DNA of 64,000 nucleotides from Brevibacillus humidisoli (GTDB taxonomy: Bacteria > Bacillota > Bacilli > Brevibacillales > Brevibacillaceae). Below are positions 4,709 through 60,874 of the stretch, piece by piece. The notes below the pieces were generated by a model. It saw nothing but the letters and a program-made list of their open reading frames with translations. It ran no database searches and had not been told where the DNA came from. The stretch's first letter is position 1. Each line of letters opens with the position of its first letter. The stretch is taken from assembly GCF_020923435.1 (NCBI RefSeq), contig NZ_CP087263.1:496001-560000 (forward strand). The letters run 5' to 3'. Made by a program: the position numbers and the translations under genes.

Positions 4709-4810
4709 CTTATTTCCTCAGCCAACAAGGAATGACGAAAAATCTCTCGAATAGGAACATATAGTAAAAAATGGTTTGTGAAGAAAAACAAGAACCAGGC
4801 AGGTGAAAAG

Positions 4811-31151: not shown

Positions 31152-33092
31152 ATGTGTGGCATTGTTGCTATGTTGTCAAGGCAGACCCAGATCCGTTCAA
31201 CTGTTCTGGATCGGGCTACCCGTCAGCTCGCCCATCGAGGTCCTGACTGCCAGCGGACGTGGCTATCCGAGACAGGGAAGGTAGGACTGGGACACGCACG
31301 TCTCAGTATCATCGACTTGCAGACGGGAGATCAACCGATTGCCAGTGAAGATGAACGGCTGCGTATCGTCGTCAACGGCGAGTTCTACGACTACGAACGC
31401 ATCCAGCGGGAATTGGAGAAAAGGGGTCACCGGTTGCGGACGCGGTCCGACAGTGAGATCGCTCTCCATTTGTACGAAGAAAACGGTATTGGATTTATGG
31501 AACACTTGCGCGGCGAGTTTGCGCTGGTTTTGTGGGATGAACAGGAGCAACGCTTGGTGGCAGCGAGAGACCGATTTGGGATAAAGCCGCTGTTTTACAC
31601 CGTGCAGGATGATGTTCTGTACATTGCTTCCGAGATGAAGGCGCTGTTTGCAGCCGGCGTTATTGCCAAGTGGGATGAACAATCGTACTACCAGCACCTG
31701 CTGTTTTACAAGCACCTCGACCGAAGCTTGTTTAAAGACATCCACCAGGTTCCGCCGGGACATCTGCTGCTGGCAACCCAACATGGGATTGAGCTGAAGC
31801 GCTACTGGGACCATGATTATCCTCTGCTGGCAGAGACGGAGGAGCGCAGTGAAGCGGAGTACATAGAGGAAGTAAGAGCAGCCTTGCATGAAAGCATCAG
31901 GCTGCGGATGAGGGCCGATGTGCCCGTCGGGTTTCACCTCAGCGGCGGAGTCGATTCGTCGGCGGTATTGGGCATGGCAGCCCAGCACCGAACCGATCCG
32001 TTGCAGGCATTTACCGTCACCTTTGCAGAAAAAGCGTACGATGAAAGTGAAGTGGCCAGGGAGACGGCTTCTTTTGTCGGGGCCGATTTCCACCCGATTC
32101 CGCTCGATTATGCCGATTTTGCCGACCACGTGGTGAAGGCGGTCTGGCATGCGGAAACGATTGGCATCAATATGAACGGTGTCGCCCGCTATCTGAAAAG
32201 CAAAGTGCTGCATGAGCGGGGGATTCGTGTCGTGCTCTCCGGTGACGGTGCCGACGAGTTGTTCGCCGGGTACATTTTTTCACGACTGGACATCTTGCTC
32301 GCCGGTCTGGAAGGACTGAGCGAAGCGGAGAAACTTGCCCGACTGGAAGAGTTTTTGGTACATAACCCATCGTTTAACCATTTGCCGGTCGCCAGTTATC
32401 TGGATCAATCGTTGACCAGCTTCCAACAGCGATTGGGCTACACGCCTACTTGGATTCTGGCGTCTCATACCAGCCGCAGCCCGTTGCGGCAATTGCTTGC
32501 GCCCGATTATCTCGATCGGCTGGGCGATTACGACCCGCATCGGGAATTTGTGGAGCGGTTGGATATTGAGGGACAATTGGCCGGACGTGACCGGGTAAAG
32601 CAGGTCCTCTACACCTGGAACAAGTCGATTTTGCCCAACCAGATCTTGTTTGCCGATCGATTGGACATGTCTCACGGGGTAGAAGTGCGCATGCCGATGT
32701 TGGATCACAAGCTGTTCGAGGTGGTTCGCAAGCTGCCTTCCTGGATGCTGATCAACAACTACAAAGAGAAGTACGCCCTGCGGGAAGCGGCAAAGCCGTA
32801 TCTGACCAAAACCGTGTACGATCGGCCCAAGCAGCCTTTCAATGCTCCGCCGTCCACGCTGCAGACGGACAACAAGCTGTTTGCGCTAGCCCAGGATATG
32901 CTGCGCAGCAGCGTAATGGATGATGTGCCTTTCTATGACAAGAAACAGATTGTCGGACTGCTTGATCAATTGCCCAAGATGGATCAACGCCAGCGGGTCA
33001 ATACGGACGCCGTCCTTCTGCTGGTGCTGACCACTTGCCTGCTGCAGGACCTGTACGTCAATGCCAGCCGCAGTCAGTCCGTGACGGGATAA
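31152..33092 (+). CDS. asnB: Asparagine synthetase (glutamine-hydrolysing)
   Basis: This 646-residue two-domain enzyme converts Asp, ATP and Gln to Asn. The N-terminal glutaminase begins MCGIVAML with the nucleophile Cys2, followed by LAHRGPDCQ and the VNGEFYDYE block. The synthetase domain has the pyrophosphate loop SGGVDSS starting at residue 264 and VVLSGDGADELFAGY. ATG 31152 follows AAGAAAGG; an upstream in-frame start would bury the Cys. It is 34 bases before the exporter gene and heads the lipopeptide cluster, where the last NRPS module is predicted to use Asn. A general Asn-supply role is also possible. Confidence 0.92.
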   Translation: MCGIVAMLSRQTQIRSTVLDRATRQLAHRGPDCQRTWLSETGKVGLGHARLSIIDLQTGDQPIASEDERLRIVVNGEFYDYERIQRELEKRGHRLRTRSDSEIALHLYEENGIGFMEHLRGEFALVLWDEQEQRLVAARDRFGIKPLFYTVQDDVLYIASEMKALFAAGVIAKWDEQSYYQHLLFYKHLDRSLFKDIHQVPPGHLLLATQHGIELKRYWDHDYPLLAETEERSEAEYIEEVRAALHESIRLRMRADVPVGFHLSGGVDSSAVLGMAAQHRTDPLQAFTVTFAEKAYDESEVARETASFVGADFHPIPLDYADFADHVVKAVWHAETIGINMNGVARYLKSKVLHERGIRVVLSGDGADELFAGYIFSRLDILLAGLEGLSEAEKLARLEEFLVHNPSFNHLPVASYLDQSLTSFQQRLGYTPTWILASHTSRSPLRQLLAPDYLDRLGDYDPHREFVERLDIEGQLAGRDRVKQVLYTWNKSILPNQILFADRLDMSHGVEVRMPMLDHKLFEVVRKLPSWMLINNYKEKYALREAAKPYLTKTVYDRPKQPFNAPPSTLQTDNKLFALAQDMLRSSVMDDVPFYDKKQIVGLLDQLPKMDQRQRVNTDAVLLLVLTTCLLQDLYVNASRSQSVTG

Positions 33093-33126
33093 CAAAGAGC
33101 AATACGGACAAAACGAGGAGAACCAG

Positions 33127-34353
33127 ATGAATCGAATCAGAGCATTTTATCACTCTTTTCACCCGATTGTGCACACGCTGTTGCTGGGAATCGTGCTGGT
33201 ATCGGTGGCCAGGGGGATGAGCATTCCCTTCCTGGCGGTATATCTCGCCACGACGACACAGTTGGACGCGGGGATGATTGGCTTGATCATTGGGGCCGGC
33301 GCGATTGCCGGCACCTTCGGGGGCTTCGTCGGGGGGACGTTATCTGATTTTATCGGGCGGAAAAAAGTGCTGATCGGTACGCTTTACGTGTTTGCGCTCG
33401 TTTTTTTCGGCTTTGTCTTAACAGCCAACGTCCTGGTGATTTTTCTGCTGAACATTTTCCTGAGCCTATGTATCTCCTTTTTTGACCCTGTGTCCAAAGC
33501 GCTGATGGGTGATTTGACACCGCCGGAGAAACGGATGCGCCTTTTCTCTTTCCGCTACACGGCCGTCAATATCGGGTTTGCGATCGGACCGCTGATCGGG
33601 ACTGCGCTTGCGTTGATTGACCAGCGGGTGCCCTTTTTGATCGGTGCCGTAATTTATCTGCTGTATGTGGTGTTCTTACAGTTCGCCTTCCGGTATTTTG
33701 CCTATGAGGACGTGCAGACGACAGCAGAAGAAAAGATTACCGTGCGCAGTGCGGTAGAAGTGATTCGGTACGACCGCGTGCTGGGATTTTTTATCCTGGG
33801 CAGTATTTTTACGATGACGGTAATGGGAGAGATGTCGGTAACCCTGTCGCAGTACTTGAAAAACAGCTTTGTTGACGGTGTGCAGCTGTTTGCGATCCTG
33901 ATGAGTGTCAACTCCGTCGTCGTGATTCTGCTCCAGTATTCTTTGACAAAATGGGCGGAGCGCTTCACGCCGCTGACCAACATCGTGATGGGCAGCATCT
34001 TGCTCGCTATCTCCGAATTGGGATTTGCCTATTCGGGAAACTGGACCTTTTTCATTCTGTCGATGATTGTCTTCACCTTGGGCGAGATTCTGATCGTTCC
34101 GTCGGAATACATCATTGTCGACCGAATTACACCTGACGGCATGCGCGGCACATACTACGGCGCCCATACCTTTAACGGCTTTGGCAACTTCATCGGCCCC
34201 TGGTTTGGCGGGATTTTGCTGACCAGCTACGGTGGCGCCACCATGTTCCAATCGTTTGGGCTGATCGCCCTGTTGAGCATCTTCTTTTTCTGGCGCGGCC
34301 AAAAAATGTATGACGCAAAACAAAGCAAAACCTTGTCCGCTCTGGAAGGCTGA
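33127..34353 (+). CDS. MFS transporter (likely peptide exporter)
   Basis: This 408-residue protein has twelve predicted membrane segments. It shows the motif-A-like loop GGTLSDFIGRKKVLIG between segments 2 and 3 and a second-half repeat starting near VLGFFILGSIFTMTVMGEMSVTL. It resembles drug-proton antiporters. Lying between asnB and the acylase gene, with gaps of 34 and 49 bases, it is probably the exporter or self-resistance pump of the lipopeptide cluster; that role is inferred. Confidence 0.88.
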   Translation: MNRIRAFYHSFHPIVHTLLLGIVLVSVARGMSIPFLAVYLATTTQLDAGMIGLIIGAGAIAGTFGGFVGGTLSDFIGRKKVLIGTLYVFALVFFGFVLTANVLVIFLLNIFLSLCISFFDPVSKALMGDLTPPEKRMRLFSFRYTAVNIGFAIGPLIGTALALIDQRVPFLIGAVIYLLYVVFLQFAFRYFAYEDVQTTAEEKITVRSAVEVIRYDRVLGFFILGSIFTMTVMGEMSVTLSQYLKNSFVDGVQLFAILMSVNSVVVILLQYSLTKWAERFTPLTNIVMGSILLAISELGFAYSGNWTFFILSMIVFTLGEILIVPSEYIIVDRITPDGMRGTYYGAHTFNGFGNFIGPWFGGILLTSYGGATMFQSFGLIALLSIFFFWRGQKMYDAKQSKTLSALEG

Positions 34354-34402
34354 GCCAAGCAGCACGAGCGTGATCAAGGAATGATGGGAGGGGCGTTTTC
34401 AG

Positions 34403-36787
34403 ATGCAAGGGGGAGAAACAGATGCCATCCAACTGCAGCAGGCGGTCCGCAACAGCATGTCACAAACATCCGGTGAAATCAACCTTCCCGGACTGCAACA
34501 AAACGTGACGGTATACCGCGATGAGCGGGGCGTACCGCATATCGAAGCAGCCAGCTTGTCTGATTTGTACATGGCTCAAGGATTTGTCACCGCCCAGGAT
34601 CGCTTGTGGCAGATGGATATGTCCAGGCGGCTGACGAGTGGGCGTATGGCAGAAGTATTTGGTCCGGACTATGTTCCGTCCGATCTGCACTATCGGAAGC
34701 TGCAGTTGAGCAAGGCGGCTGAGGAGTCTCTTGACAGGTGTTCTGCGGCTGTGCGGGAGATTCTGGAGCGTTTCTCTGCGGGAATCAACGCGTATATCAG
34801 GCAGGCAAGCGAGCAGGGCAGTCTGCCGCTGGAATTCGTCCTGCTGGACTATCAGCCGGAACCGTGGACACCGCTTGACACCATGCTGATCGGCAAACTG
34901 CTTGCAGCCAGCCTGAGTGAAAACCTGAAAGCGGAGATTTATCGCGACCAGTTGCGCAGCCGGGTAGGAGATGAGCGGGCCAAAGAGCTATGGCCTGTCT
35001 ATCCTGAGGACGGCTATGTGACGATTCCATCTGGCGATCTAGCGGATGGCTGCACGCAGCTTGATGAGTCGCCGCTCCTGCCTGAAAACAAACGCCTTGA
35101 TCTGAGCGGCCTACTTCGTCTATTGAGCGGATCGAGTCAGGGAAACGGCTCCAATGGCTGGGTTGTCTCCGGAAAGCTGACCAAGTCGGGCAAACCGCTG
35201 CTGGCCAACGATCCACATCTCGACTACGAGGTTCCTGCGATCTGGTATCAGACGCACCTGAATCTGCAGACGGAAGCCGGGGAGAGGCTCAATGTGATCG
35301 GTGTCACCCTGCCCGGTGTGCCGGGGATCGTCCTTGGCCACAATGACCAGATTGCCTGGGGCGTGACCAATGCGATTGCCGATACCCAGGATCTCTTTCT
35401 GGAAAAGTTCCACCCGGCCAACCTGCAACTGGTGATGCATCAGGGCAAGTGGGAGGATGTGACGGTCGTTCGGGAAACGATCCGGGTAAGAGGGGGCGCG
35501 GATATTCCGCTGGATGTGCGCATCACCCGACATGGTCCGATACTGACCGAGGTGGAGTCCCATGATGACCCTGATGCTGCTGTCTACGGCTTGGCGCTGC
35601 GCTGGACCGCCTATGGCGCCAGTGCTGAAATCGAGGCGTTCTTGGAACTGAACAAGGCGAAAAACTGGGAAGAATGCCGGGAGTGCTTGCGCAAGATTGA
35701 GTCTCCCGTGTTAAACGTGCTGTTTGCTGCTGTGGACGGAACGATCGCTTTGCGCACGGCGGGAAGCATTCCGATCCGGGCCAGAGGAGATGGGTTGGTT
35801 CCGGTTCCCGGCTGGACGGATGAGTACGAGTGGAACGGTTTTATTCCCTTTGAAGAAATGCCGGAAGTGGTCAATCCGGAGCAAGGCTTTATCGTTTCCG
35901 CCAATAACAAGATTACGGACGACGCTTATCCCTACCTGATATCGGCCGCTTGGGATACGCCGTACCGGGCGAAGCGGATTGCCGATCAACTGCAGCGCGG
36001 GAGGGAACTGACGGTAGAGGAGATGAGCTCGCTGCAGGGAGATCTGGCAAATGAACAGGCTGACACCATCCTGCCTATCTTGTTGGAGGTGCTCCAGCGA
36101 CAATCGTTGTCACCAGATGAGCAGGAGGCTGTACACATCCTGAAAACATGGGATCGTCTGGACGAGGCTCATCAAGCGGCTCCCCTGCTGTATCATGTGT
36201 GGGATCTCTCCCTGCGCAAACATCTATATGAACCGCAGATGGGCGCAGACTTGTATGCCTTGATGGCAGACGGTACCAATGTGACCGACCAGATGCTGCG
36301 GCGCGCGGCAGAAGGGCAGGAAAGCAGTTGGATCAAGGAGGCGGGTGAATTCGACCTGCTTGTCTACCAAAGTTTTCAAGCGGCCTTGCAGCATGTGATC
36401 TCTCTGCAGGGCCACGATTCCCGGAAGTGGCGGTGGGGCGATTATCATCAGCTCCGTTTCGCACATCCGTTAAGCAGTTTGCTGGAGCGGATAGGAGCAA
36501 CTGCGGATGTCCCTGCATACCCGGTTGGCGGAAGCAGGCAGACAGTCTGCCTGATGGGCTTTGCAGAATCGGGACGGGTGCTGAGCGGAGCCTCCTGGAG
36601 ACAGGTGGTCGATCTGGCTGCTCTCGACCGTCAATCCTATGATATTCTCACACCCGGACAATCAGGACAGGTGGGCAGCCGCTGGTACGCCGATCAGGCC
36701 CCGCTGCATGTGAAAGGAGAGTTGCGTCCCCAATTGTTCCGACCGGAAGAGTACCGAACAGGGGAAAAACTGGTTCTTCACCCGTAA
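34403..36787 (+). CDS. Penicillin acylase family protein without signal sequence
   Basis: This 794-residue Ntn hydrolase is a paralogue of the enzyme at 4811: TVYRDERGVPHIEA, AQDRLWQMDMSRR, and the predicted cleavage G|SNGW with nucleophile Ser250 followed by PLLANDPHLDYEVPAIWYQ. The N terminus (MQGGETDAIQLQQAVRNS) has no hydrophobic segment, and an in-frame stop at 34382 excludes an upstream extension. The enzyme should therefore stay inside the cell. GGGAGGGG precedes ATG 34403. It lies directly before an NRPS that starts with a fatty-acyl ligase. It could remove the acyl group from the lipopeptide (compare PvdQ in pyoverdine maturation) or protect the producer. Confidence 0.88.
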   Translation: MQGGETDAIQLQQAVRNSMSQTSGEINLPGLQQNVTVYRDERGVPHIEAASLSDLYMAQGFVTAQDRLWQMDMSRRLTSGRMAEVFGPDYVPSDLHYRKLQLSKAAEESLDRCSAAVREILERFSAGINAYIRQASEQGSLPLEFVLLDYQPEPWTPLDTMLIGKLLAASLSENLKAEIYRDQLRSRVGDERAKELWPVYPEDGYVTIPSGDLADGCTQLDESPLLPENKRLDLSGLLRLLSGSSQGNGSNGWVVSGKLTKSGKPLLANDPHLDYEVPAIWYQTHLNLQTEAGERLNVIGVTLPGVPGIVLGHNDQIAWGVTNAIADTQDLFLEKFHPANLQLVMHQGKWEDVTVVRETIRVRGGADIPLDVRITRHGPILTEVESHDDPDAAVYGLALRWTAYGASAEIEAFLELNKAKNWEECRECLRKIESPVLNVLFAAVDGTIALRTAGSIPIRARGDGLVPVPGWTDEYEWNGFIPFEEMPEVVNPEQGFIVSANNKITDDAYPYLISAAWDTPYRAKRIADQLQRGRELTVEEMSSLQGDLANEQADTILPILLEVLQRQSLSPDEQEAVHILKTWDRLDEAHQAAPLLYHVWDLSLRKHLYEPQMGADLYALMADGTNVTDQMLRRAAEGQESSWIKEAGEFDLLVYQSFQAALQHVISLQGHDSRKWRWGDYHQLRFAHPLSSLLERIGATADVPAYPVGGSRQTVCLMGFAESGRVLSGASWRQVVDLAALDRQSYDILTPGQSGQVGSRWYADQAPLHVKGELRPQLFRPEEYRTGEKLVLHP

Positions 36788-36824
36788 CTGGGATTCCTGT
36801 AAAGGGATCCCCCTATACACGATA

Positions 36825-36861
36825 TTTACATTTTTTTAAAGAATACTTAAATATTGGAGGG
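36825..36861 (+). promoter_or_regulatory. AT-rich region before the NRPS genes with promoter-like boxes
   Basis: TTTACA (36825-36830) and TAAATA (36848-36853) are 17 bases apart, but a transcript from here would begin at the ribosome site (GGAGGG 36856-36861). Either the true promoter is shifted or transcription comes through from the acylase gene. Confidence 0.3.
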
Positions 36862-36870
36862 ATACCAGTC

Positions 36871-45495: not shown

Positions 45496-45528
45496 CCCAA
45501 TTACGGAAGTGGATGCCGGAGGTGCAGC

Positions 45529-54500: not shown

Positions 54501-56058
54501 CGGGTACCTGAACCGCCCGGAATTGACCAAGGACCGGTTTATCGAAGATCCGTTCCGAGCCGGCACAGGTGAGCGGCTCTACCGGACCGGTGACCTGGCC
54601 CGTTATCTGCCGGACGGCACCATCGATTATCTGGGACGCATCGATTTCCAAGTAAAAATACGCGGCTACCGAATCGAATTGGGCGAGATTGAAGCAGTTC
54701 TGCGCTTGCATCCAGCCGTTGAGGAGTGCGTCGTGTCGGTCAGAGAAGTACAGCCTGGCGACAAGCGTCTCATCGCCTACGTGGTCGCAGCTTCTCCCAT
54801 CAACTCAGCGTATGAGGCACTGCGGGAGTACCTGCGGCAAAAGGTACCGACGTACATGATGCCAACTGACTTTGTCTTCGTGGATGGACTGCCGCTCACG
54901 TCGAACGGAAAAGTGGATCGCGATGCGCTCCCCACTCCTAATCGAACCAGAGCGCAGCGGCAGAAAGAGTACATCGCTCCGCGAGATGAATGGGAAGCGA
55001 AGCTAGTTGCCCTCTGGGAAGAACTGCTGCTCGTCCACCCGATCAGCGTCAAGGACGACTTTTTCCAACTGGGCGGTCACTCCCTGCTTGCGGTACGGAT
55101 GTTTGCCCGGATCAAGGAACAGTTCCAGCAGAGTTTGCCGCTGTCTACGCTGTTTCATGAACCGACGATCGCCCATTTGGCTGCCGTACTGCGTCAGCGA
55201 AACAAGCAGCATAGCTCGTCGCTGATCCCGATTCAAGCTCGCGGATCCAATCAGCCTCTGTTCTTTGTCCACCCGATTGGCGGCAGTGTCTTCTGCTATC
55301 AGCGACTGTCGGCACTGCTGGGGGCGGATCAGCCGTTTTACGGTCTGCAGGCACAAGGGCTGGCCGATGGTCGGAGACCCCGCCACAGCGTACTGGAGAT
55401 GGCGAGCAGCTATATCGAGCAGCTCCGAGGTGTCCAGCAGAGCGGACCGTATGTGCTGGGTGGTTGGTCGTTCGGCGGGGTGGTCGCCTATGAGATGGCG
55501 CTCCAGCTGCAGGCAGCGGGCGAAGAAGTAGCCGGGCTGTTTTTGATCGACAGTTTTCCCGATGCTTACCGTGATACAGAAGAGATGGATGACCTTACCT
55601 TGCTGGCCATGTTTGCAAAAAATTTGCTCAGCAGTGACAACAATGAGATTCCCGACTGGTTTGAATCCTTGCACCAGCTTCCGCTGGAGCGTGCGCTCCG
55701 GCAGCTGCTGGATACCCTGACGGCCCAGCAGTTGGTGCAAATGTCGTTTACCGAATTCAGCGAGTTGTTTTACGTCTTCCGTGCCAACCTGTTTGCCTAT
55801 CGCAGCTATCTGCCGAAACCGTCCGGCCTGCCGCTTGTCCTGTTTACGGCTAGCGATCGTGCTGCACAGAGCCTTGCTGCGCAGAGAGGTCCGACAAACG
55901 GGTGGGAGAACGTGACAGACGGTGTGATTGAGCTTCATCAGCTTCCCGGCAATCACTTCACCATCCTGGAATCGCCCGGTGTGGAGCGACTGGCAGAGAC
56001 GCTCGCGGCGAAGCTGCGTGAGATCGCTGAGCACTTCTGGTTGTCCAACAAAGGATGA
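45529..56058 (+). CDS. NRPS 2: C-A(Pro)-T-C-A(Val)-T-C-A(Asn)-T-TE
   Basis: This is a 3509-residue trimodular terminating synthetase. All three C domains keep HHxxxDG (181-187, 1251-1257, 2312-2318). Adenylation pockets were read by hand. A3 (core at 660) reads D V Q F I A H V V K, close to the proline code. A4 (core 1728) reads D A F W L G G T F K, valine. A5 (core 2789) reads D L T K V G E V G K, asparagine. Carrier Ser residues are 1059, 2121 and 3185. The C-terminal type I thioesterase (about 3240-3500) has GWSFGG with Ser3314 and His3476 (LPGNHF), and would release a linear or cyclised product. No E or MT domains. GGAGGTG lies six bases before ATG 45529, 33 bases after NRPS 1. Confidence 0.95.
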   Translation: MQEVKSNDPNRVAELSPVKRALLEKMLERQRQQNPAGEQITARPRGERIPLSFAQQRLWFLDQYEPDSPVYNLCYAIRLKGWLRIDILEQCFSEIVKRHEILRTTYAAVEGEAVQVIHPPQPVRIELISLEARSAAEQEREVSRLVKMEAERSFRLTDDRMLRTTLLRLGEREHLLLITIHHIAADGWSLGVFIEETMKLYEAYYHQQPSPLPPMPIQYADFACWQREWANGPEFARQQSYWKQKLSGSLPILQLPTDRPRPPAQTYRGGVERFSLSAELTQALREMGRQTGATLFMSLLAAFKTLLFRYTGQEDILVGSPIANRNRSETEGLIGFFVNTLVLRSQPAGTLTFREYLDQIREVALEAYAHQDVPFEQLVAEMLPKRDVRYPPLFQVMFILQNAPREEMRLPDLHLEHTILDSGTSKFDLTLSCTEQADRLTVAIEYNTDLFEQQTVIRLFRHFETLLASIVRDPMQPLSQLQVMPEEERHRLLVEWNQTASDESGREMCVHHLVEAQVAKTPHAIAAADRTQVLTYAELDRRANQLAHYLLKQDVGPDRLVGVSLQRSVDMVVALLGILKAGGAYVPIDPTYPADRISYMLEDSGVTVLITEAEIFDTLPASKGVHLIRIDADWPTMARESESQPSAEAKPEHLAYVIYTSGSTGKPKGVMMPHRPLSNLLAWQVKSFSAPVAARTAQFASLSFDVSFQEIFSTLSSGGSLLVLDEEDRQDPLKLLTFIAEQEVERLFLPFVALQQLAQAGNMSGIIPPRLRELITAGEQLQLTRQISGWLQKLNNCRLFNHYGPSESHVVTSYLLPSEPEKWPALPPIGRPIDNVRIYLLDAHLQPVPIGVPGELYIGGDALAGGYWNRPELTAERFINHTFDGVGKERLYRTGDVARYLTDGTIEYIGRNDYQVKVRGYRIELGEVEAALRAHPDIRDAVVIVRDDVISDKRLIAYLVAEGSDTPVLEKLRSFLLKRLPEYMLPAVCVWMESLPLTPNGKVDRRALPDPDPAVRDTEREYAAPSTFVETIIAQIWAEVLKVEQIGLYDHFFELGGHSLLATQVILRINERFGIEVPLKSLFEAPTLQAFAEEVTAMLEGLDAEQVPAIKPVAKEGELPLSFAQERVWFFEQYETGTATYNIPGAVRLRGPLDVKALEHSFAEIVKRHASLRTTYVAANGSALQVIAPDCAIPLPIVDLQHVPLQQREDEWRLLARKEASLPFDLSTGPMLRTTLVKLNQEEHVLLITLHHISADGWSVGVLISELTQLYNAFVSGSSSPLPDLPLQYVDYACWQRQWLQGYRLEKQLAYWKRQLDGELPVLQLPTDRPRLAAQTYRGASHRFILSRQLTGALKQLCAQTGTTLYMVLLAAFKTLLHRYSGQDDIVVGSAVANRNRREWEGLIGFFVNTLVMRSFPDSSQTFRAYLEQVRQTSLDAFAHQDVPFERLVAEFSSHRSRSSSALFQVMFVLQNAPAESPSLSGLTLEPLEVDSGTAKFDLTLSMREATDQLHGYLEYNADLFDASTVERMVHHFENLLQGVAANPEQPLGKLPLLTAEEREQLLVGWNKTSTDYPRDASIDRLFAEQAARTPDAVALICGTEQMTYQQLDQRANQLAHYLQKQGLKQGELVGVCLHRSLELIVSLVAILKAGGAFLPLDPAYPRERLAYMLEDARATILLTDHKTAEVLPEHGLSQVMLDRDRDRIAAESTDHTAMQTSADDLAYVMYTSGSTGRPKGVCVPHRGVVRLVKGNHYASFSTEDVFLQFSPVSFDASTFEIWGSLLNGARLVLYPDSKASLAELGSVLRQYQVTTLWLTAGLFHQMVEQRLEDLSSVKQLLAGGDVLSLSHVRKVREALPDTLLINGYGPTEGTTFTCCYPVQDVGELQGSVPIGRPIANTQVYILDRHMQPVPVGVAGELYIGGDGLADGYLNQPELTRERFVSHPFSGNPLERLYKTGDLVRYRADGNIEFLGRIDNQVKIRGFRIELGELEAVLDQHPDVQGSVVRVWQRENGDKRLVAYLAVVRQQKPTTAELRSFLQERIPEYMIPSLFILLDRFPLTANGKVDRQALPAPEEAAIKQERVVAAAGTPVEQALVEIWSEMLGLSPIGINDNFFELGGHSLLAMQVVSRVAAQFNVNLPLKAFFEQPTIAELAALIEERMGTGQLQTAVRLEAAGQELAPLSFAQERVWFFEQMEPGTTMYHVPGAIRLHGKLSVSALELAFQEIVRRHESLRTSFVEVDGQPMQKIHPASSVSVPVLDLRDHPAARRHAEAERIMREEASRPFDLYNGPLIRFYLLRLDETEHLLLCNMHHIISDGWSFGVLFREFGLLYQSYAAANTPSLPALPLQYADYTQWQKEWFQSEDADAQLRYWTRQLGGQLPVLQLPTDRPRPAVQTYRGAAESFTLSAELTEALKQLGQREGATLFMTLLAAFKTLLYRYTGQRDLLVGTPIANRANDQLEQLIGFFVNTLVLRTRLEESLTFREWLGRVKTTALDAFAHQDMPFEKLVEQLNPVRTLSHSPLFQVMFVLQNSPKGEVVLSDVTFRPLQVETTVSKFDLTLFMEESGQGMRGWFEYNTDLFEAATIQRMIGHLQTLLEAIVRQPECSLSHLPLLTDAEQHQLLVEWNDTAAEYPADKAFHQLFEQQVKRTPDAPAAVFGDQQLTYRELNQRANQLAAYLQSMGAGPEKLVGVCMERSLELLVAVLGIFKAGGAYVPIDPAYPAERIAFILSDAAPVLLVTQERLRSRLPQTTTKQISLDAEWSRIQHQPDHSLDLPTSPEQLAYVIYTSGSTGTPKGVMIVQRGLVNYLHWCQKAYPVAAGEGAPVHSSVAFDLTITSMFVPLLAGKKVVFLPEEARVDELGRLLKESGPFSLVKITPAHLEVLNQQLAPGELARCSKSLVIGGEALSPETVSYWRQHAPDTLLFNEYGPTETVVGCIVHQVSAQSEYGETVPIGRPIANTRIYLLDANRQPVPIGVPGEICIGGAGVARGYLNRPELTKDRFIEDPFRAGTGERLYRTGDLARYLPDGTIDYLGRIDFQVKIRGYRIELGEIEAVLRLHPAVEECVVSVREVQPGDKRLIAYVVAASPINSAYEALREYLRQKVPTYMMPTDFVFVDGLPLTSNGKVDRDALPTPNRTRAQRQKEYIAPRDEWEAKLVALWEELLLVHPISVKDDFFQLGGHSLLAVRMFARIKEQFQQSLPLSTLFHEPTIAHLAAVLRQRNKQHSSSLIPIQARGSNQPLFFVHPIGGSVFCYQRLSALLGADQPFYGLQAQGLADGRRPRHSVLEMASSYIEQLRGVQQSGPYVLGGWSFGGVVAYEMALQLQAAGEEVAGLFLIDSFPDAYRDTEEMDDLTLLAMFAKNLLSSDNNEIPDWFESLHQLPLERALRQLLDTLTAQQLVQMSFTEFSELFYVFRANLFAYRSYLPKPSGLPLVLFTASDRAAQSLAAQRGPTNGWENVTDGVIELHQLPGNHFTILESPGVERLAETLAAKLREIAEHFWLSNKG

Positions 56059-56106
56059 ACCGCTTCCGGTACTCATTTGCAAAATCGTCAAGGAGGTAGA
56101 GTACAC

Positions 56107-57630
56107 ATGACCAGGCAAGAAGTAACAGGGCAAGCAACAGATACCGTTGCGCTTACCGGTAGAATTAGCTCGGCGCCAACCAAGCTGCTGCACGATGAAA
56201 TCCTTGAACCCCAGTTCCGCTTTGAATTGGAGCATCTACTTCCTTCCTATATCCTCATCGAAAAAGTGATGCTGCTGGAGTACGTCAGGATGGGGCTGAT
56301 CCCTCAGCGTACCGTCGCAGAGATGGGGGCGATACTGGAGTTGATTACGCCTGAATCGCTCACAGCTGACCCTAAGCAAAACATGTCGGACATCGCTTTT
56401 GCGATCGAACGGTTTGTCGAGAACAGAATCACGGATCTCCCGCCCGTCTGGCATGCCGACCGCAGTCGAAACGACTTTCAGGCATGCGCTCAGTTGATGT
56501 TTGCTCGCCAACAGCTGATCCATCTCGTGAAGGAGTTTTTTATCCTATCGTCAGTTGTGAAGCAATTGGCAGAACGCACGCTCTCCCTGCCGATGCCGGG
56601 TTATACCCACTATCAATCGGCTCAGATCGTGACACCCGGCTTTTACTTTACCGCACTAAATGAACAGCTACTCTCCCTGTTGGAACGGCTGCTCTTCGTC
56701 TACGACGGCATTGACAAATGTCCGTTTGGGGCCGGTGCAATGGCCGGGATGGAACTGCCGTGGGACCGGGAGCACATCGCAGCGCTGCTCGGATTCTCGG
56801 CCAGTCAGGCACACGCGTTGGTATCGGTCGCTTCACGGGAGTGGGTGCTCAGGATTGCCGCCGAATTGTCCAATGGGAGCGTGACGATCAGCCGTTTTGT
56901 GACAGACCTGATCTACTGGGGCAGCAGTGAATGCGGTTTTATCGATCTGCCCGATTCCTTGTCAGGTATCTCTTCGGCCATGCCGCAAAAAAAGAACTTT
57001 CCGGTATTGGAGCGGATCAGGGGCAAGGCAGCCCATCTGACTGCTTACTATATGGATTTTTCACTGGGGCAGCGGAACACCGCCTACACCAACCTGGTGG
57101 AGACATCGAAAGAGAGCGGCAGACATCTGCTCGACATGTTTACCCAGATGAATGCGATCGTCAAACTGCTGCGTGCTGTGCTGGAGCATCTGCAGTTTGA
57201 GGAAGAACGGATGCGCGACGTCTGCCGACGAGGCTACTTTGGCGGTTTTTCATTGGCCAATCTGCTCTCGCTGCACAACCAGATTCCCTATCGCTCGGCA
57301 CAGGTGATAGCCGGCCGCTACATCGTGCAGGCTCTGGAGCAAAAGCTGGACCCGACCGCCGTCAAGTACTCGCTGCTGCAGGAGATTTGCCAGCAGCAGG
57401 GCTTTCCGTTAACCCTGCCTGAAGAGATGTTGTACCGCGTTTTTGATGTCGAGGAGAGCTTGCACATGAAGCAGACAAAAGGCTCGACCAACCCGGAAGC
57501 AGTAGATTCTCTGCTGCAGCAACAGCAGGAATGGGCGGTCGGTCTGCATCAAGCATGGCAAACACGTGAGAGAAGGGTGACCGACAGTTATGCCGAAATC
57601 GATGCCTTGCTACTCAAGGGGAGGAGGTAA
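56107..57630 (+). CDS. Argininosuccinate lyase-like enzyme (2,3-diaminobutyrate pathway)
   Basis: This 507-residue fumarase/aspartase-superfamily lyase has HADRSRNDFQACAQL, MPGYTHYQSAQIV and the signature loop SSAMPQKKNFPVLE from residue 289, which holds the catalytic Ser. One extra residue (Phe) splits the usual KKNP of true argininosuccinate lyases. No other arginine genes are nearby. Followed by a GHMP kinase and a cysteine-synthase-like gene, it matches the lyase of 2,3-diaminobutyrate biosynthesis. There it would eliminate fumarate from an aspartate adduct. ATG 56107 has AAGGAGGT upstream. Confidence 0.85.
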   Translation: MTRQEVTGQATDTVALTGRISSAPTKLLHDEILEPQFRFELEHLLPSYILIEKVMLLEYVRMGLIPQRTVAEMGAILELITPESLTADPKQNMSDIAFAIERFVENRITDLPPVWHADRSRNDFQACAQLMFARQQLIHLVKEFFILSSVVKQLAERTLSLPMPGYTHYQSAQIVTPGFYFTALNEQLLSLLERLLFVYDGIDKCPFGAGAMAGMELPWDREHIAALLGFSASQAHALVSVASREWVLRIAAELSNGSVTISRFVTDLIYWGSSECGFIDLPDSLSGISSAMPQKKNFPVLERIRGKAAHLTAYYMDFSLGQRNTAYTNLVETSKESGRHLLDMFTQMNAIVKLLRAVLEHLQFEEERMRDVCRRGYFGGFSLANLLSLHNQIPYRSAQVIAGRYIVQALEQKLDPTAVKYSLLQEICQQQGFPLTLPEEMLYRVFDVEESLHMKQTKGSTNPEAVDSLLQQQQEWAVGLHQAWQTRERRVTDSYAEIDALLLKGRR

Positions 57631-57639
57631 TGCGTCCCG

Positions 57640-58551
57640 ATGAATTATCCTGCACAAGGCCAATATGCTGGCAGATCGTCACTGGACGTAAAGGCGATGG
57701 GAAAGGGGAGCGCATGCGGTACGTTTGGCGAGTTGCTGCAAGGCGCACTGGAGGAGGAAGACTCTGACTTTCTGGTTACCTTTCCGATTGATCGGCAGGC
57801 CCATGCCACCTTTATTTCTGATCCGGCACGCGATGAGCTCATTGTCGAACCGCCGCAAAAACAGAAGTCGCGCCGGTTGGCTGAGATGATCCTGCGTTTC
57901 TTTTCGCTTCCTCTGGGCGGCGTGCTGCGACTGACCGCTGACATTCCGGTCGGCAAAGGATTGGCCAGCTCATCAGCCGACCTGGTTGCTACTGCACGGG
58001 CGATTGAGGATTGTTTCTCGCTCCAGTTGCCGGTTCCACTGTTGGAAACCTTTATGAGACAGATCGAACCATCTGATGGTGTGATGTACCCTGGTGTGGT
58101 CTCGTTTTTTCACCGCAGGGTACAGCTCCGCGAGTTGATCGGACCGCTGGCTCCCTTGACAGTGGTCAGCATCGACGAAGGTGGCGAGGTGGATACGATT
58201 GAGTTTAACCGCTTGCCCAAGCAATATACGACAGCGGATAGGCAGGAATACCAGCAGCTGCTGGATGCGATGACGACAGCGATCCGTCAAAACGACCTCG
58301 CTACGATCGGCAAAATCTCCACCCGCAGCGCAATTCTCAACCAGAAGCTGCGTCCCAAGCGAACACTGGATCAATTGCTTGCCATCTGCGAAGAGGTGGA
58401 AGGATTAGGGGTCTCTGTCGCACACAGCGGGACTTGCCTGGGGATTTTGCTGTCCCCGCAGCATGTCCGCTACCAGGAACAACTGACAGCGGCCAGCTTG
58501 CATCTTCAGCAATTGGCCGATCAGGTTGTCATCTACCACTCATCGACCTGA
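57640..58551 (+). CDS. GHMP kinase, L-threonine kinase-like
   Basis: This 303-residue GHMP kinase has the ATP loop PVGKGLASSSAD at 103-114, an N-terminal GKGSACGTFGELLQG as in PduX-type threonine kinases, and a C-terminal AHSGTCLGILL glycine-rich loop. It probably phosphorylates threonine so that the hydroxyl becomes a leaving group for the next enzyme. The start ATG 57640 lies 12 bases after GGAGG; ATG 57697 is an alternative. It is 9 bases after the lyase gene and 21 before the PLP enzyme. Confidence 0.82.
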   Translation: MNYPAQGQYAGRSSLDVKAMGKGSACGTFGELLQGALEEEDSDFLVTFPIDRQAHATFISDPARDELIVEPPQKQKSRRLAEMILRFFSLPLGGVLRLTADIPVGKGLASSSADLVATARAIEDCFSLQLPVPLLETFMRQIEPSDGVMYPGVVSFFHRRVQLRELIGPLAPLTVVSIDEGGEVDTIEFNRLPKQYTTADRQEYQQLLDAMTTAIRQNDLATIGKISTRSAILNQKLRPKRTLDQLLAICEEVEGLGVSVAHSGTCLGILLSPQHVRYQEQLTAASLHLQQLADQVVIYHSST

Positions 58552-58572
58552 ATAGAGAAAGGAGCGGCGAAC

Positions 58573-59625
58573 ATGCTTCGATCGACGATGATTGATGCGA
58601 TAGGGCAAACACCATTGGTGAAACTGCGTTTGGACGATAAGGCGGTCGGTTCGGTCTACGCCAAACTGGAAATGATGAATCCGTTTGGGATGAAGGACCG
58701 GGCCGCCAAGCAAATCATACTGGAAGCGAAGCGCAGCGGTGTACTGGCCGACGGGGCGCCGATCATGGAAAGCTCCTCCGGCACCATGGCGATGGGAGTG
58801 GCATTGGTTGGAACCTATCTCGGGCATGAGGTGCATATCGTGACAGACCCGCGGATCGACCGGCTTACCCTGCGGAAGCTGGAATCGCTCGGCTGTCGGA
58901 TCCACATCGTAGAACGGATGAGCAGTCAAGGGTGGCAAAGCGCTCGTCTGGAGCGGCTGCAGGAGCTACTCAAAGAGTATCCTGGAGCATTTTGGCCGCG
59001 ACAGTACGACAACCCCCATAATCCGCTGGCCTATGCCCAACTGGCGGACGAATTGCTGGCGGATCTCGGCAGGGTTGATGTGCTGGTTGCTTCCGTCGGC
59101 AGTGGCGGCTCTTTGTGTGGGACGGCTCGTCATCTGCTGCGAACCAATCCCGAGCTGCGCGTAGTCGCCGTGGATTCCGTAGGAAGCGTGATCTTTGATC
59201 AACCGGACATCCCGGGCCGGCTGCAGAGCGGTCTGGGGAACAGTCTGGTCGCGCCTAATGTAGACCATGCCCTGGTGGACGAAGTTCACTGGCTTAACGA
59301 CCACGAGGCGTTTTCCGCCACGTTGGATTTGGCCAGACATGAAAAAGTGTTTGCCGGAAACAGTTCCGGTTCGGTCTATGCCGTCGCCCGCTGGATCAGT
59401 CGTCACGTGCAGCCGGAGACCAATATCGTCGGGATTTTTCCCGACCGCGGCGACCGCTACGTGTACACCTTTTACGACGAAGCGTACCGGCGGGAGAAAC
59501 AGATCAATATTTCCGAAACGACCAACGAACCGACCAAAGTACCGTATCAGACAGTGGTTTCTTCCTGGTCGTACGCGACGGTAAAAAAGGGGGAAAGACA
59601 TGAACAGGCTGCTGCTCTTCGTTGA
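58573..59625 (+). CDS. PLP-dependent cysteine synthase-like enzyme
   Basis: This 350-residue fold-type II PLP enzyme has Lys41 (PFGMKDRAAK) as the cofactor lysine, the substrate loop ESSSGTMAMG, and the phosphate-binding GSGGSLCGTARH. It resembles SbnA and the beta-replacement enzymes of diamino-acid pathways more than housekeeping CysK. Proposed step: replace the phosphate of phosphothreonine with an amine donor (aspartate, given the lyase). AAAGGAG precedes ATG 58573. It overlaps the ATP-grasp gene by 26 bases. Confidence 0.82.
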   Translation: MLRSTMIDAIGQTPLVKLRLDDKAVGSVYAKLEMMNPFGMKDRAAKQIILEAKRSGVLADGAPIMESSSGTMAMGVALVGTYLGHEVHIVTDPRIDRLTLRKLESLGCRIHIVERMSSQGWQSARLERLQELLKEYPGAFWPRQYDNPHNPLAYAQLADELLADLGRVDVLVASVGSGGSLCGTARHLLRTNPELRVVAVDSVGSVIFDQPDIPGRLQSGLGNSLVAPNVDHALVDEVHWLNDHEAFSATLDLARHEKVFAGNSSGSVYAVARWISRHVQPETNIVGIFPDRGDRYVYTFYDEAYRREKQINISETTNEPTKVPYQTVVSSWSYATVKKGERHEQAAALR

Positions 59626-60874
59626 ATCCAACACGACGGGAACAGGTATGCTGGCGTTGAAGAAGGCGCAAGCATACGGGGTTACCCCCGTGTTTCTGAC
59701 CAACAAACCGGAACGCTATCTGGGGCTTGCGGAGACGGGATGCCAGGTACTGATGTGTGACACCAACTCTCTGGAGGAACTGCGGCAAACGATCGAGACC
59801 AGACTGGCTGTCAACCAGTTGTGCGGGATCATGACAACCAGCGAGTTTTACCTGGTTACGACAGCCAAACTGGCGGAGCTCTACGGTTTGCCCGGCAATC
59901 CGCCGGAGGCGATGGAAATCTGCCGGAACAAGGCAAAAACCAGACAGCGCCTGTCCGAAGAGGGAGTGGAACAGCCGCGCTTTGCAATTGTACAGGATCC
60001 GGCACAGATCCCTGCGGCGATGGCGGCGGTCGGTCTGCCTTGTGTGGTGAAACCAGTCGATGACAGCGGCTCCAATGATGTGAAGCTGTGCCATACGGTT
60101 GAGCAAATCGAGCAGCAGTTGGCCGTTATTCTGGCAGAGAAGCTGAATACACGCGGCCAGCAGCGGGAGCGCGCGATTCTGATCGAGGAGTATCTGGACG
60201 ATCCGGAGTTTAGTGTGGAAATGTTTACATATGCGGGGCAAACGATCAGCATCGGGATTACGCAAAAGCAGATCAGCGGCACTCCTTTTTTTGTCGAGCA
60301 TCAGCACATCTTCCCAGCCCAGCTCTCCACTGAGACCGCTGAGCAGATCAAAGATACGGTGCTGAGGGCCTTGACTGCCGTCGGGATACAGAACGGGGCC
60401 ACCCATACCGAGGTAAAAGTGACCTCAAAAGGCTGCGCGATCATCGAGATCAACGCCAGGCTTGCCGGCGGGATGATCCCTGAGCTGATCCATCAAGCTA
60501 CAGGAATTGACCTGCTGGAGCAGCAGATAAAAGCAGCGATGGGTGAGTGCACCATCCACAAGCAGGAAGTTGCGTCCAAGGAGTATGCCGGGATACACTT
60601 TTTTCTTTCCGAGCAAGAGGGGACGTTTCAGAGAGCAGAAGGCATCGAGCGAGTACGCAACATGCCTGGCATCCACAATGTCACGATTACCGCCAGAGAA
60701 GGCGGGCAGGTACACGTCGCCCAAAACGCCTACCATCGTTTAGGTTATGTGATCGCCTCTGGGACCACCTATACGGAGACGGAAAAGCGTCTAACCGAAG
60801 CAGTCAGACAGATTGCGCTTGTGCTGGAGGAGCGGCAGGAAGCTGTCCCGCTGCTGCAACCCGCACCTGGTTGA
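59600..60874 (+). CDS. ATP-grasp carboxylate-amine ligase
   Basis: This 424-residue ATP-grasp enzyme has a Rossmann-like N-terminal domain (LLLFVESNTTGTGMLALKKA). The ATP-binding core holds GLPCVVKPVDDSGSNDV and ILIEEYLDDPEFSVEMF. The metal-binding strand IIEINARLAGGMIPELI is present, followed by a C-terminal beta domain. It resembles the BacD and carnosine-synthase branch that joins amino acids by an acyl phosphate. Translationally coupled to the PLP enzyme. It may add an amino acid to the NRPS product or build a precursor; the substrate is unknown. Confidence 0.85.
   Translation: MNRLLLFVESNTTGTGMLALKKAQAYGVTPVFLTNKPERYLGLAETGCQVLMCDTNSLEELRQTIETRLAVNQLCGIMTTSEFYLVTTAKLAELYGLPGNPPEAMEICRNKAKTRQRLSEEGVEQPRFAIVQDPAQIPAAMAAVGLPCVVKPVDDSGSNDVKLCHTVEQIEQQLAVILAEKLNTRGQQRERAILIEEYLDDPEFSVEMFTYAGQTISIGITQKQISGTPFFVEHQHIFPAQLSTETAEQIKDTVLRALTAVGIQNGATHTEVKVTSKGCAIIEINARLAGGMIPELIHQATGIDLLEQQIKAAMGECTIHKQEVASKEYAGIHFFLSEQEGTFQRAEGIERVRNMPGIHNVTITAREGGQVHVAQNAYHRLGYVIASGTTYTETEKRLTEAVRQIALVLEERQEAVPLLQPAPG

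What the first reader, a model, noticed from the sequence alone, without database searches (positions are those of the whole stretch)
31152..60874. Apparently complete lipopeptide gene cluster with a built-in 2,3-diaminobutyrate pathway
Seen: asnB, MFS exporter, Ntn acylase, two NRPSs (lipid start, five amino-acid modules, terminal TE), then an ASL-like lyase, GHMP kinase, CysK-like PLP enzyme and ATP-grasp ligase, all on one strand with short gaps or overlaps. Known: a threonine kinase, cysteine-synthase-like enzyme and argininosuccinate-lyase-like enzyme together supply 2,3-diaminobutyrate in friulimicin and pacidamycin pathways. Inference: the cluster makes an acylated pentapeptide containing this amino acid. 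The combination of FAAL start, five modules, this cassette, ATP-grasp and cytosolic acylase is one I do not recognise from a known compound.
Basis: partly seen in the sequence, partly recalled or inferred. Interest (0 to 1): 0.85.

Follow-up and report, generated by a model that had tools for sequence, protein, structure and literature searches.

The report
Diaminobutyrate peptide operon, bleomycin-type start
A bacterium of the Brevibacillus family carries a complete assembly line for an unknown small peptide, with its own supply of what is probably the rare amino acid 2,3-diaminobutyrate and a start that resembles the one that builds the head of the drug bleomycin.

Summary
In detail: nine co-directional genes (31152-60874): asnB, MFS, acylase, two NRPSs, ASL, GHMP kinase, CysK, ATP-grasp. 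Brevibacillus borstelensis has the same order and five identical codes, but no ASL there and a shortened ATP-grasp. The 2,3-diaminobutyrate (Dab) idea gains support: code DIW..DD is in 24 of 42 full-cassette loci, in 0 of 81 control A domains, and beside the cassette in a friulimicin-type cluster. ATP-grasp is a standing member (42 of 42). 'Acylated pentapeptide' is incomplete. The condensation domain between Thr and Dab is of the dehydrating CmodAA class (KNVLLAAH; clade 100/100) and lacks both catalytic histidines, as reported for bleomycin-family domains that do conjugate addition; FAAL start, asnB and penicillin-type acylase also recur in bleomycin-type clusters. Best reading: acyl-Thr becomes acyl-dehydrobutyrine, Dab's amine adds to its beta carbon, the acyl group is removed in the cytosol, and a soluble, possibly metal-binding pseudopeptide is exported. 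Conjugate addition is inferred; grouping with bleomycin-type domains is weak (93/53).

The parts
31152..33092 (+). asnB: glutamine-hydrolysing asparagine synthase
   Evidence: TIGR01536 440 bits, cut-off 267; relatives at 58% in the B. thermoruber cluster and 39-42% in four bleomycin-type clusters
33127..34353 (+). MFS exporter
   Evidence: NCBIfam MFS efflux matches, none above its cut-off; 83% in B. borstelensis
34403..36787 (+). Ntn acylase (PF01804), no N-terminal hydrophobic anchor; predicted nucleophile Ser250 in GSNGW
   Evidence: 742 bits; PDB best D-succinylase, then glutaryl-7-ACA acylase; highest 19-residue hydropathy in the N-terminal part 0.63 against 3.01 for the paralog at 4778-7207
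36871..45495 (+). NRPS1: FAAL-T-C-A(Thr)-T-CmodAA-A(Dab)-T
42238..43605 (+). C2 of NRPS1: CmodAA (dehydrating) condensation domain
   Evidence: PDB: McyA C domain 360 bits, AmbE dehydrating domain 172, McyB 149, PvdL 103, surfactin and tyrocidine 77-93; clade 100/100
42625..42669 (+). C2 active-site stretch VLIEPFLDGWSVVSL: both histidines of HHxxxDG absent
42985..43008 (+). CmodAA signature KNVLLAAH
   Evidence: consensus [K/R]SVLLAAH from PMC11342130
43621..45105 (+). A2 adenylation domain with its C-terminal subdomain, code DIWEINADD (2,3-Dab); ends approximate
   Evidence: covariation
45529..56058 (+). NRPS2: C-A(Pro)-T-C-A(Val)-T-C-A(Asn)-T-TE
56107..57630 (+). ASL-like lyase with SSAMPQKKN loop (proposed fumarate-releasing step)
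   Evidence: argH model 245 bits, below its 279.5 cut-off; PDB argininosuccinate lyases
57640..58551 (+). GHMP kinase (proposed threonine kinase)
   Evidence: PF00288/PF08544; homoserine kinase model only 33 bits, cut-off 168
58573..59625 (+). CysK/SbnA-like PLP enzyme (proposed beta-replacement step)
   Evidence: TIGR03945 SbnA 258 bits, below its 350 cut-off; PDB SbnA 5d87 best
59600..60874 (+). ATP-grasp ligase with LAL_C2 domain
   Evidence: PF13535, PF18603; matches the ATP-grasp half of the fusion model PRK02186 at 323 bits, below its 625 cut-off

Best explanation
The operon makes a short non-ribosomal pseudopeptide by a bleomycin-type start. Steps: (1) The kinase, PLP enzyme and ASL-like lyase turn Thr into 2,3-diaminobutyrate via O-phospho-Thr and an Asp adduct that loses fumarate; ATP-grasp takes part in a step not yet known (pathway inferred; cassette-code link shown). 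(2) FAAL loads a fatty acid and C1 puts it on Thr (domains shown). (3) The CmodAA domain C2 dehydrates acyl-Thr to acyl-dehydrobutyrine (class shown, reaction inferred). (4) Because C2 has no HHxxxDG histidines, the Dab amine adds to the beta carbon of dehydrobutyrine instead of forming an amide, as reported for BlmVI/TlmVI/ZbmVI (inferred). (5) NRPS2 adds Pro, Val and Asn, and TE releases the chain (codes shown). (6) The freed Thr-derived carboxyl is amidated by AsnB (inferred; AsnB may instead only supply Asn), the acylase removes the fatty acyl group in the cytosol (inferred), and the MFS protein exports a water-soluble product with an amine-rich, possibly metal-binding head (inferred).
For: Dab supply: code DIW..DD is in 24 of 42 loci with ASL, CysK and ATP-grasp, and in 24 of 78 A domains there, against 1 of 27 A domains in the other loci of the same scan and 0 of 81 in control loci. 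In the genome whose module order fits friulimicin the same code is on the A domain next to the cassette, and the module after the first has no A domain; PMC9113097 describes a trans ATTe protein PstA serving a CT module at position 2. CmodAA: PDB ranking; signature KNVLLAAH; of 13 signature-bearing C domains among 139 (12 distinct, L034 and L120 being one stretch), all but one follow a Ser/Thr-type code; clade 100/100. Conjugate addition: no histidines in the motif; [quoted passage not shown] Tool kit: asnB in 4 of 4 of those lines, a penicillin-acylase gene (30% identical) near the pAMDE1 line; PMC3777966 notes an acylase shared by pAMDE1 and zorbamycin; B. thermoruber has FAAL-Thr-CmodAA without histidines plus acylase, asnB and MFS in another cluster.
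Against: Grouping of C2 with the bleomycin-type domains has SH-aLRT 93 but UFBoot only 53. PMC10880069 reports that changing H1497 of AmbE to Ala cut or abolished its product, so C2 without histidines might also dehydrate poorly or be altered in another way. The acceptor is Dab here, Asn in bleomycin-type lines. The same histidine-less C2 in B. thermoruber faces a Gly-type module, so the loss tracks the FAAL-Thr start, not Dab. In the friulimicin-type line the C domain at the Dab2 site keeps HHITGDG. 17 of 41 full-cassette loci with A domains in view show no DIW code. Acylase was found in 1 of 4 actinobacterial bleomycin-type stretches, weakly (25%), and no asnB match in the 41-kb pAMDE1 stretch. 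asnB may serve only the Asn module. The Asp-adduct route to Dab is recalled; PMC3179956 cites Thr plus ammonia for mureidomycin, PMC4052310 likens DabB to the deaminase VioK, not to ASL, and PMC12471526 says the CysK and ASL genes of one gausemycin cluster are absent from another. No enzyme activity or product is known.
Confidence: 0.42

Rival explanations
1. Dehydration without conjugate addition: C2 makes acyl-Dhb and still joins Dab by an amide, giving acyl-Dhb-Dab-Pro-Val-Asn. Removal of the acyl group in the cytosol would expose an enamine that falls to a 2-oxobutyryl group, which could close onto the beta-amine of Dab as a dihydropyrazinone.
For: CmodAA class and Ser/Thr donors; AlbB-C2 is described as dehydrating Ser and then condensing (PMC10880069); acylase without anchor.
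Against: Canonical condensation needs the second histidine (PMC11342130), which C2 lacks; no precedent was found here for the pyrazinone step.
Confidence: 0.26
2. One reading: an ordinary lipopentapeptide acyl-Thr-Dab-Pro-Val-Asn, linear or lactonised; C2 forms a normal amide and the acylase is a resistance or turnover enzyme.
For: FAAL, C domain after it, five colinear modules and TE; two related lines (B. borstelensis, B. thermoruber) also have FAAL.
Against: C2 is a CmodAA domain without catalytic histidines; the acylase has no anchor and would meet the product before export.
Confidence: 0.2
3. The cassette makes a different diamino acid (for example 2,3-diaminopropionate) or a Dab derivative made with the ATP-grasp ligase, and module 2 activates that.
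For: The CysK copy is closest to SbnA, which serves diaminopropionate; ATP-grasp in 42 of 42 full cassettes has no role in the three-enzyme scheme; a PstA homologue also serves laspartomycin position 2 (its residue there, Dap, is recalled).
Against: A kinase 51% identical is in the friulimicin-type cluster with the same kind of A code, and friulimicin is attributed Dab made by DabABC from Thr (PMC4052310).
Confidence: 0.12

Closest known systems
Bleomycin-family start (BlmVI/TlmVI/ZbmVI; Alteromonas plasmid pAMDE1)
   Same: FAAL-T-C-A-T-CmodAA without histidines-A; asnB in four bleomycin-type lines examined; penicillin-type acylase in pAMDE1 (an acylase also in zorbamycin, per PMC3777966)
   Different: Thr instead of Ser, Dab instead of Asn; no His-, beta-Ala- or Cys-type modules; ends Pro-Val-Asn-TE; Bacillota host; acylase without anchor
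Friulimicin/amphomycin 2,3-Dab supply and PstA
   Same: CysK-, ASL-, ATP-grasp- and GHMP-type genes next to an A domain of the DIW..DD code
   Different: Gene order; CysK and ASL only about 34% identical; there the A domain acts in trans and the C domain keeps HHxxxDG; no Asp-Gly-Asp-Gly modules here
Brevibacillus borstelensis NRRL NRS 818 sister cluster (L014-L016, L025)
   Same: Same order and five identical codes; 61-83% identity
   Different: No ASL found in the stretch, ATP-grasp frame 251 aa, thioesterase-like gene after it (by eye); a second complete cassette lies elsewhere in that genome
Brevibacillus thermoruber FAAL-Thr-CmodAA cluster (L157-L160)
   Same: FAAL-Thr-CmodAA without histidines, acylase (46-47%), asnB (58%), an MFS gene
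   Different: Larger NRPS/PKS hybrid, Gly-type module after C2, acylase with a hydrophobic N-terminal stretch, no Dab cassette in the 80 kb fetched
SbnA/SbnB diaminopropionate pathway
   Same: SbnA-like PLP enzyme
   Different: ASL-like lyase and kinase instead of SbnB

Membership tests
2,3-Dab cassette of the friulimicin kind | CysK-like PLP enzyme and ASL-like lyase adjacent to an NRPS | tested here: met
2,3-Dab cassette of the friulimicin kind | GHMP kinase and ATP-grasp, as in the friulimicin-type cluster | tested here: met
   ATP-grasp in 42 of 42 loci with ASL and CysK
2,3-Dab cassette of the friulimicin kind | Partner A domain with the code kind found beside the cassette in the friulimicin-type cluster | tested here: met
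   DIWEINADD here, DIWQSTADD there
2,3-Dab cassette of the friulimicin kind | Enzymes make 2,3-Dab | not testable with these tools
   needs assay
CmodAA condensation domain | Signature [K/R]SVLLAAH | tested here: met
   KNVLLAAH, one position off the consensus
CmodAA condensation domain | Groups with a proven member (AmbE) against canonical and starter C domains | tested here: met
   100/100; the other side was four window C domains only
CmodAA condensation domain | Ser/Thr module upstream | tested here: met
   DFWNIGMVH
CmodAA condensation domain | Dehydrating activity | not testable with these tools
   needs assay
Bleomycin-type conjugate-adding CmodAA (BlmVI-C2 group) | Both histidines absent | tested here: met
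   IEPFLDG
Bleomycin-type conjugate-adding CmodAA (BlmVI-C2 group) | Branches with bleomycin-type domains | tested here: inconclusive
   SH-aLRT 93, UFBoot 53
Bleomycin-type conjugate-adding CmodAA (BlmVI-C2 group) | Phe with Gly/Ala in place of the histidines; Ser donor and Asn acceptor | tested here: not met
   IE, Thr and Dab here: so 'works like', not filed as a member
Lipopeptide | Fatty acyl start (FAAL) | tested here: met
   AMP-binding plus DIP2-like domain at the N-terminus; acyl specificity not tested
Lipopeptide | Acyl chain kept in the product | not testable with these tools
   acylase in the operon speaks against

The most novel reading that the evidence does not exclude
A Bacillota assembly line reuses the bleomycin head-group chemistry on threonine: it makes a pseudopeptide whose first two residues are joined by a carbon-nitrogen bond (a 2,3-diaminobutyramide N-linked to a second 2,3-diaminobutyrate), strips a transient fatty acyl group in the cytosol, and exports a small polyamine chelator rather than a lipopeptide. 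The operon thus obtains two 2,3-diaminobutyrate units by two unrelated routes, a four-gene precursor cassette and on-line dehydration plus addition.
Probability: 0.3. Interest if true: 0.8.

Novelty: new variant of a known kind. Interest (0 to 1): 0.62.

Why it matters
It ties an unusual A-domain code to a gene cassette, so that probable 2,3-Dab modules can be called from sequence in Bacillota and actinobacterial clusters. It shows that ATP-grasp regularly belongs to the cassette, which makes its role a direct question. It points to a compact five-module line outside the bleomycin family in which conjugate-adding condensation, transient acylation and deacylation could be studied, and to a product class that a search for lipopeptides would miss.

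Tried and rejected
Primary arginine or cysteine metabolism: rejected, the genome has better argH and cysK genes elsewhere. Loss of the second histidine as a Dab-specific trait: first seen in the C domains before DIW modules, rejected because B. thermoruber shows it with a Gly-type module and the friulimicin-type C2 keeps HH; it fits Ser/Thr donors better (7 of 7 acidic cases, but 8 of 16 C domains with such donors keep His; one stretch, L034/L120, is counted twice there). In Brevibacillus L017-type and L050 lines the motif reads HALCMDD-like or NSKLLDE and its alignment is unsure; these were not used. Heterocyclisation (Cy) domain: rejected by eye, the DxxxxD motif is absent. A viral-contig scan with the kinase found no relative. 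Before the tree, three domains that repeat others (L169, L175, L177) and identical sequences were left out; two of the three repeats were checked.

Papers: the codes were in no paper. A search for Brevibacillus with 2,3-diaminobutyric lipopeptides listed one review; its passages concern laterocidine with a synthetic Dab swap, brevicidine and relacidine. A search for B. borstelensis with lipopeptides listed three papers; in the one opened, passages show only a plasmid protein, the other two were not opened. A search joining CmodAA, conjugate addition, bleomycin, acylase, diaminobutyrate and Brevibacillus listed four papers, none on this subject by title, none opened. All these cover open PMC papers only. 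MIBiG could not be searched.

Recalled, from no call: the residue names given to A codes; the bleomycin residue order; the length of the A. friuliensis chromosome; the Asp-adduct and fumarate route to 2,3-Dab; AsnB amidation in bleomycin. 
Full report
What is there. The window lies in a 4.9-Mb single-contig genome at C1:496001-560000. Nine genes run on one strand from 31152 to 60874 with gaps of 9-83 nt and one overlap. Upstream is SpoVR, downstream a DsbD_TM protein. The two NRPSs hold all five full-length condensation domains found in the genome; the only other PF00668 match is two fragments in one frame.

Assembly line. Pfam gives FAAL-T-C-A-T-C-A-T in NRPS1 and three C-A-T modules plus TE in NRPS2. 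Codes read against PheA are DFWNIGMVH, DIWEINADD, DVQFIAHVV, DAFWLGGTF and DLTKVGEVG. Yardsticks inside this work: DLTKVGEVG stands at the Asn positions of four bleomycin-type lines, and DVQYVAHVV ends the friulimicin-type line; residue names are recalled. Stereochemistry was not tested.

The sister. B. borstelensis carries asnB, MFS, acylase, NRPS1, NRPS2, kinase, CysK and ATP-grasp in the same order at 61-83% identity, with five identical codes. It has no ASL between NRPS2 and kinase, nor elsewhere in the 55.5 kb fetched by that test, and its ATP-grasp frame is 251 aa instead of 424, matching in two pieces. The same genome has a second, complete cassette, which could serve in trans (inference). 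In 39 genomes of the family, the window's own included, the kinase is found in 12; the two other genomes of the window's genus lack it.

The cassette and its code. A scan of named genomes with the kinase alignment kept the best 80 of 347 relatives. Of these 80, 42 have ASL and CysK on the kinase's strand; all 42 also have ATP-grasp, and 41 have NRPS sequence in the flank. Seven more have only part of the set: CysK without ASL in five (two with ATP-grasp, B. borstelensis among them), ASL without CysK in two. Among the 42, 41 have a readable A domain and 24 show a code DIW..DD; 24 of 78 A domains (200 aa or more) in these loci have it, against 1 of 27 in the other loci of the scan and 0 of 81 (300 aa or more) in 59 loci, 39 with A domains, fetched by C-domain or acylase similarity or as neighbours of such loci. 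Loci are related and some control loci overlap, so counts are not independent events. 17 of the 41 show no DIW code within the flank; 13 of these 17 have a threonine aldolase gene, and a wider stretch of one of them (G044) showed none either. In G075, whose module order fits friulimicin, CysK, ASL and ATP-grasp precede an A domain of code DIWQSTADD, with the kinase after it, and the module after Asn lacks an A domain. PMC9113097 (passages) describes a trans ATTe protein PstA serving the CT module at position 2. PMC4052310 (passages) attributes Dab to DabABC acting on Thr while noting that this is not fully understood; it likens DabB to VioK, not to ASL. So module 2 most likely takes 2,3-Dab, and ATP-grasp is a standing part of the cassette whose role is open.

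Not primary metabolism. The cluster ASL scores 245 bits with argH (cut-off 279.5), and the CysK copy 258 bits with SbnA (cut-off 350). The genome has argH and cysK genes at 667 and 454 bits elsewhere.

C2 of NRPS1 matches the McyA condensation domain (360 bits) and the dehydrating AmbE domain 7r9x (172 bits) better than McyB (149), PvdL (103) and surfactin or tyrocidine C domains (77-93). It carries KNVLLAAH, close to the signature [K/R]SVLLAAH that PMC11342130 reports for CmodAA domains (passages). Of 139 C domains of at least 330 aa, 13 carry this signature (12 distinct, as L034 and L120 are one stretch), and all but one follow a Ser- or Thr-type code. In a 37-sequence tree the signature-bearing domains and AmbE separate from four canonical or starter domains of the window at 100/100. 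Characterised CmodAA domains dehydrate Ser, Thr or a hydroxy-Glu derivative on the carrier (PMC10880069, passages).

No histidines. In place of HHxxxDG, C2 has IEPFLDG; the sister has the same and B. thermoruber TEPFLDG. [quoted passage not shown] Against this, PMC10880069 says that H1497 of AmbE, within its HHxxxDG motif, is needed for its product. A search of 390 genomes gave matches in 167; I looked closer at four with paired hits. They show FAAL, Ser, CmodAA, Asn and further Asn-, His-, Ala- and Thr-type codes, two of them also beta-Ala- and Cys-type codes: the bleomycin order as recalled. Their CmodAA domain between Ser and Asn shows FG or FA, and each has an asnB gene at 39-42% identity to the window's. 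The Alteromonas plasmid pAMDE1, described as bleomycin-related in PMC3777966 (passages), has FAAL, Ser, CmodAA without histidines, Asn, and an annotated penicillin acylase family gene, 30% identical to the window's. The tree joins window, sister and B. thermoruber with these five at SH-aLRT 93 but UFBoot 53: suggestive only.

The acylase. It is a PF01804 Ntn hydrolase with a GSNGW processing site. Four related acylases examined, including the window's own paralog at 4778-7207, have a hydrophobic N-terminal stretch (19-residue hydropathy 1.99-3.01); the cluster copy and its B. borstelensis counterpart do not (0.63 and 0.44), and in-frame stops lie just upstream. So it should act inside the cell, before export; no signal-peptide program was run.

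Mechanism. The parts fit a bleomycin-type start carried out on Thr with Dab as the partner: acylation, dehydration, amine addition to the beta carbon, chain extension with Pro, Val, Asn, release, deacylation, export. Shown: gene content, domain classes, codes, motif loss, missing anchor. Inferred: dehydration, conjugate addition, amidation by AsnB, deacylation of the product. If C2 still forms an amide, the product is an acyl-Dhb peptide and its deacylation would give a 2-oxobutyryl group. An ordinary lipopentapeptide is the least favoured of the three structural readings.

Novelty. Each ingredient has a known relative; the combination of a friulimicin-type precursor cassette with a bleomycin-type starter, in a Bacillota operon of five modules, was not met in the paper searches made, which cover open PMC texts only. 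I rate it a new variant of a known kind.

Noticed in passing
window 4778-7207 (+): A second penicillin-type acylase (PF01804) with a hydrophobic N-terminal stretch, about 46% identical to the cluster acylase; relatives of the cluster acylase (E <= 1e-100) occur in 68 of 398 genomes of the class.
   Followed up: partly
L025-L104 (80 loci): ATP-grasp accompanies ASL and CysK in 42 of 42 loci; its role in 2,3-Dab supply is unexplained.
   Followed up: partly
L035, L048, L049, L067, L069, L077: A threonine aldolase gene follows or precedes the cassette in 16 of 42 full cassettes; the 6 full-cassette loci of the scan with an A code DD[VI][QS]xSTID all have it, while L050 (DDVQISQID, no full cassette) shows none. 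Perhaps it supplies allo-threonine or another Dab isomer.
   Followed up: no
L014-L016, L025: The B. borstelensis sister lacks ASL and has a 251-aa ATP-grasp frame, while a second complete cassette lies elsewhere in the genome: possible supply in trans or decay.
   Followed up: partly
   Followed up: partly
L157-L160, L161: B. thermoruber (and a B. borstelensis contig of 18 kb) hold an NRPS cluster with FAAL-Thr-CmodAA without histidines and an acylase with a hydrophobic N-terminus; the B. thermoruber stretch also has PKS-like genes (by eye), asnB, a thioesterase and an MFS gene: apparently a second product of the same start.
   Followed up: partly
L017, L018, L022-L024, L037: Another Dab-type NRPS cluster in several Brevibacillus genomes (codes DIWQITTDD then DVG[ED]IG[SC][IV]D) with kinase, MFS, ASL, CysK, ATP-grasp and threonine aldolase; its first C domain has an odd HALCMDD-like motif.
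   Followed up: no
L042-L044, L057 and 15 others: 19 of the 80 loci, Streptomyces by title, have the kinase and a CysK-like gene (about 30% identical) on the opposite strand without ASL: perhaps another use of the kinase.
   Followed up: no
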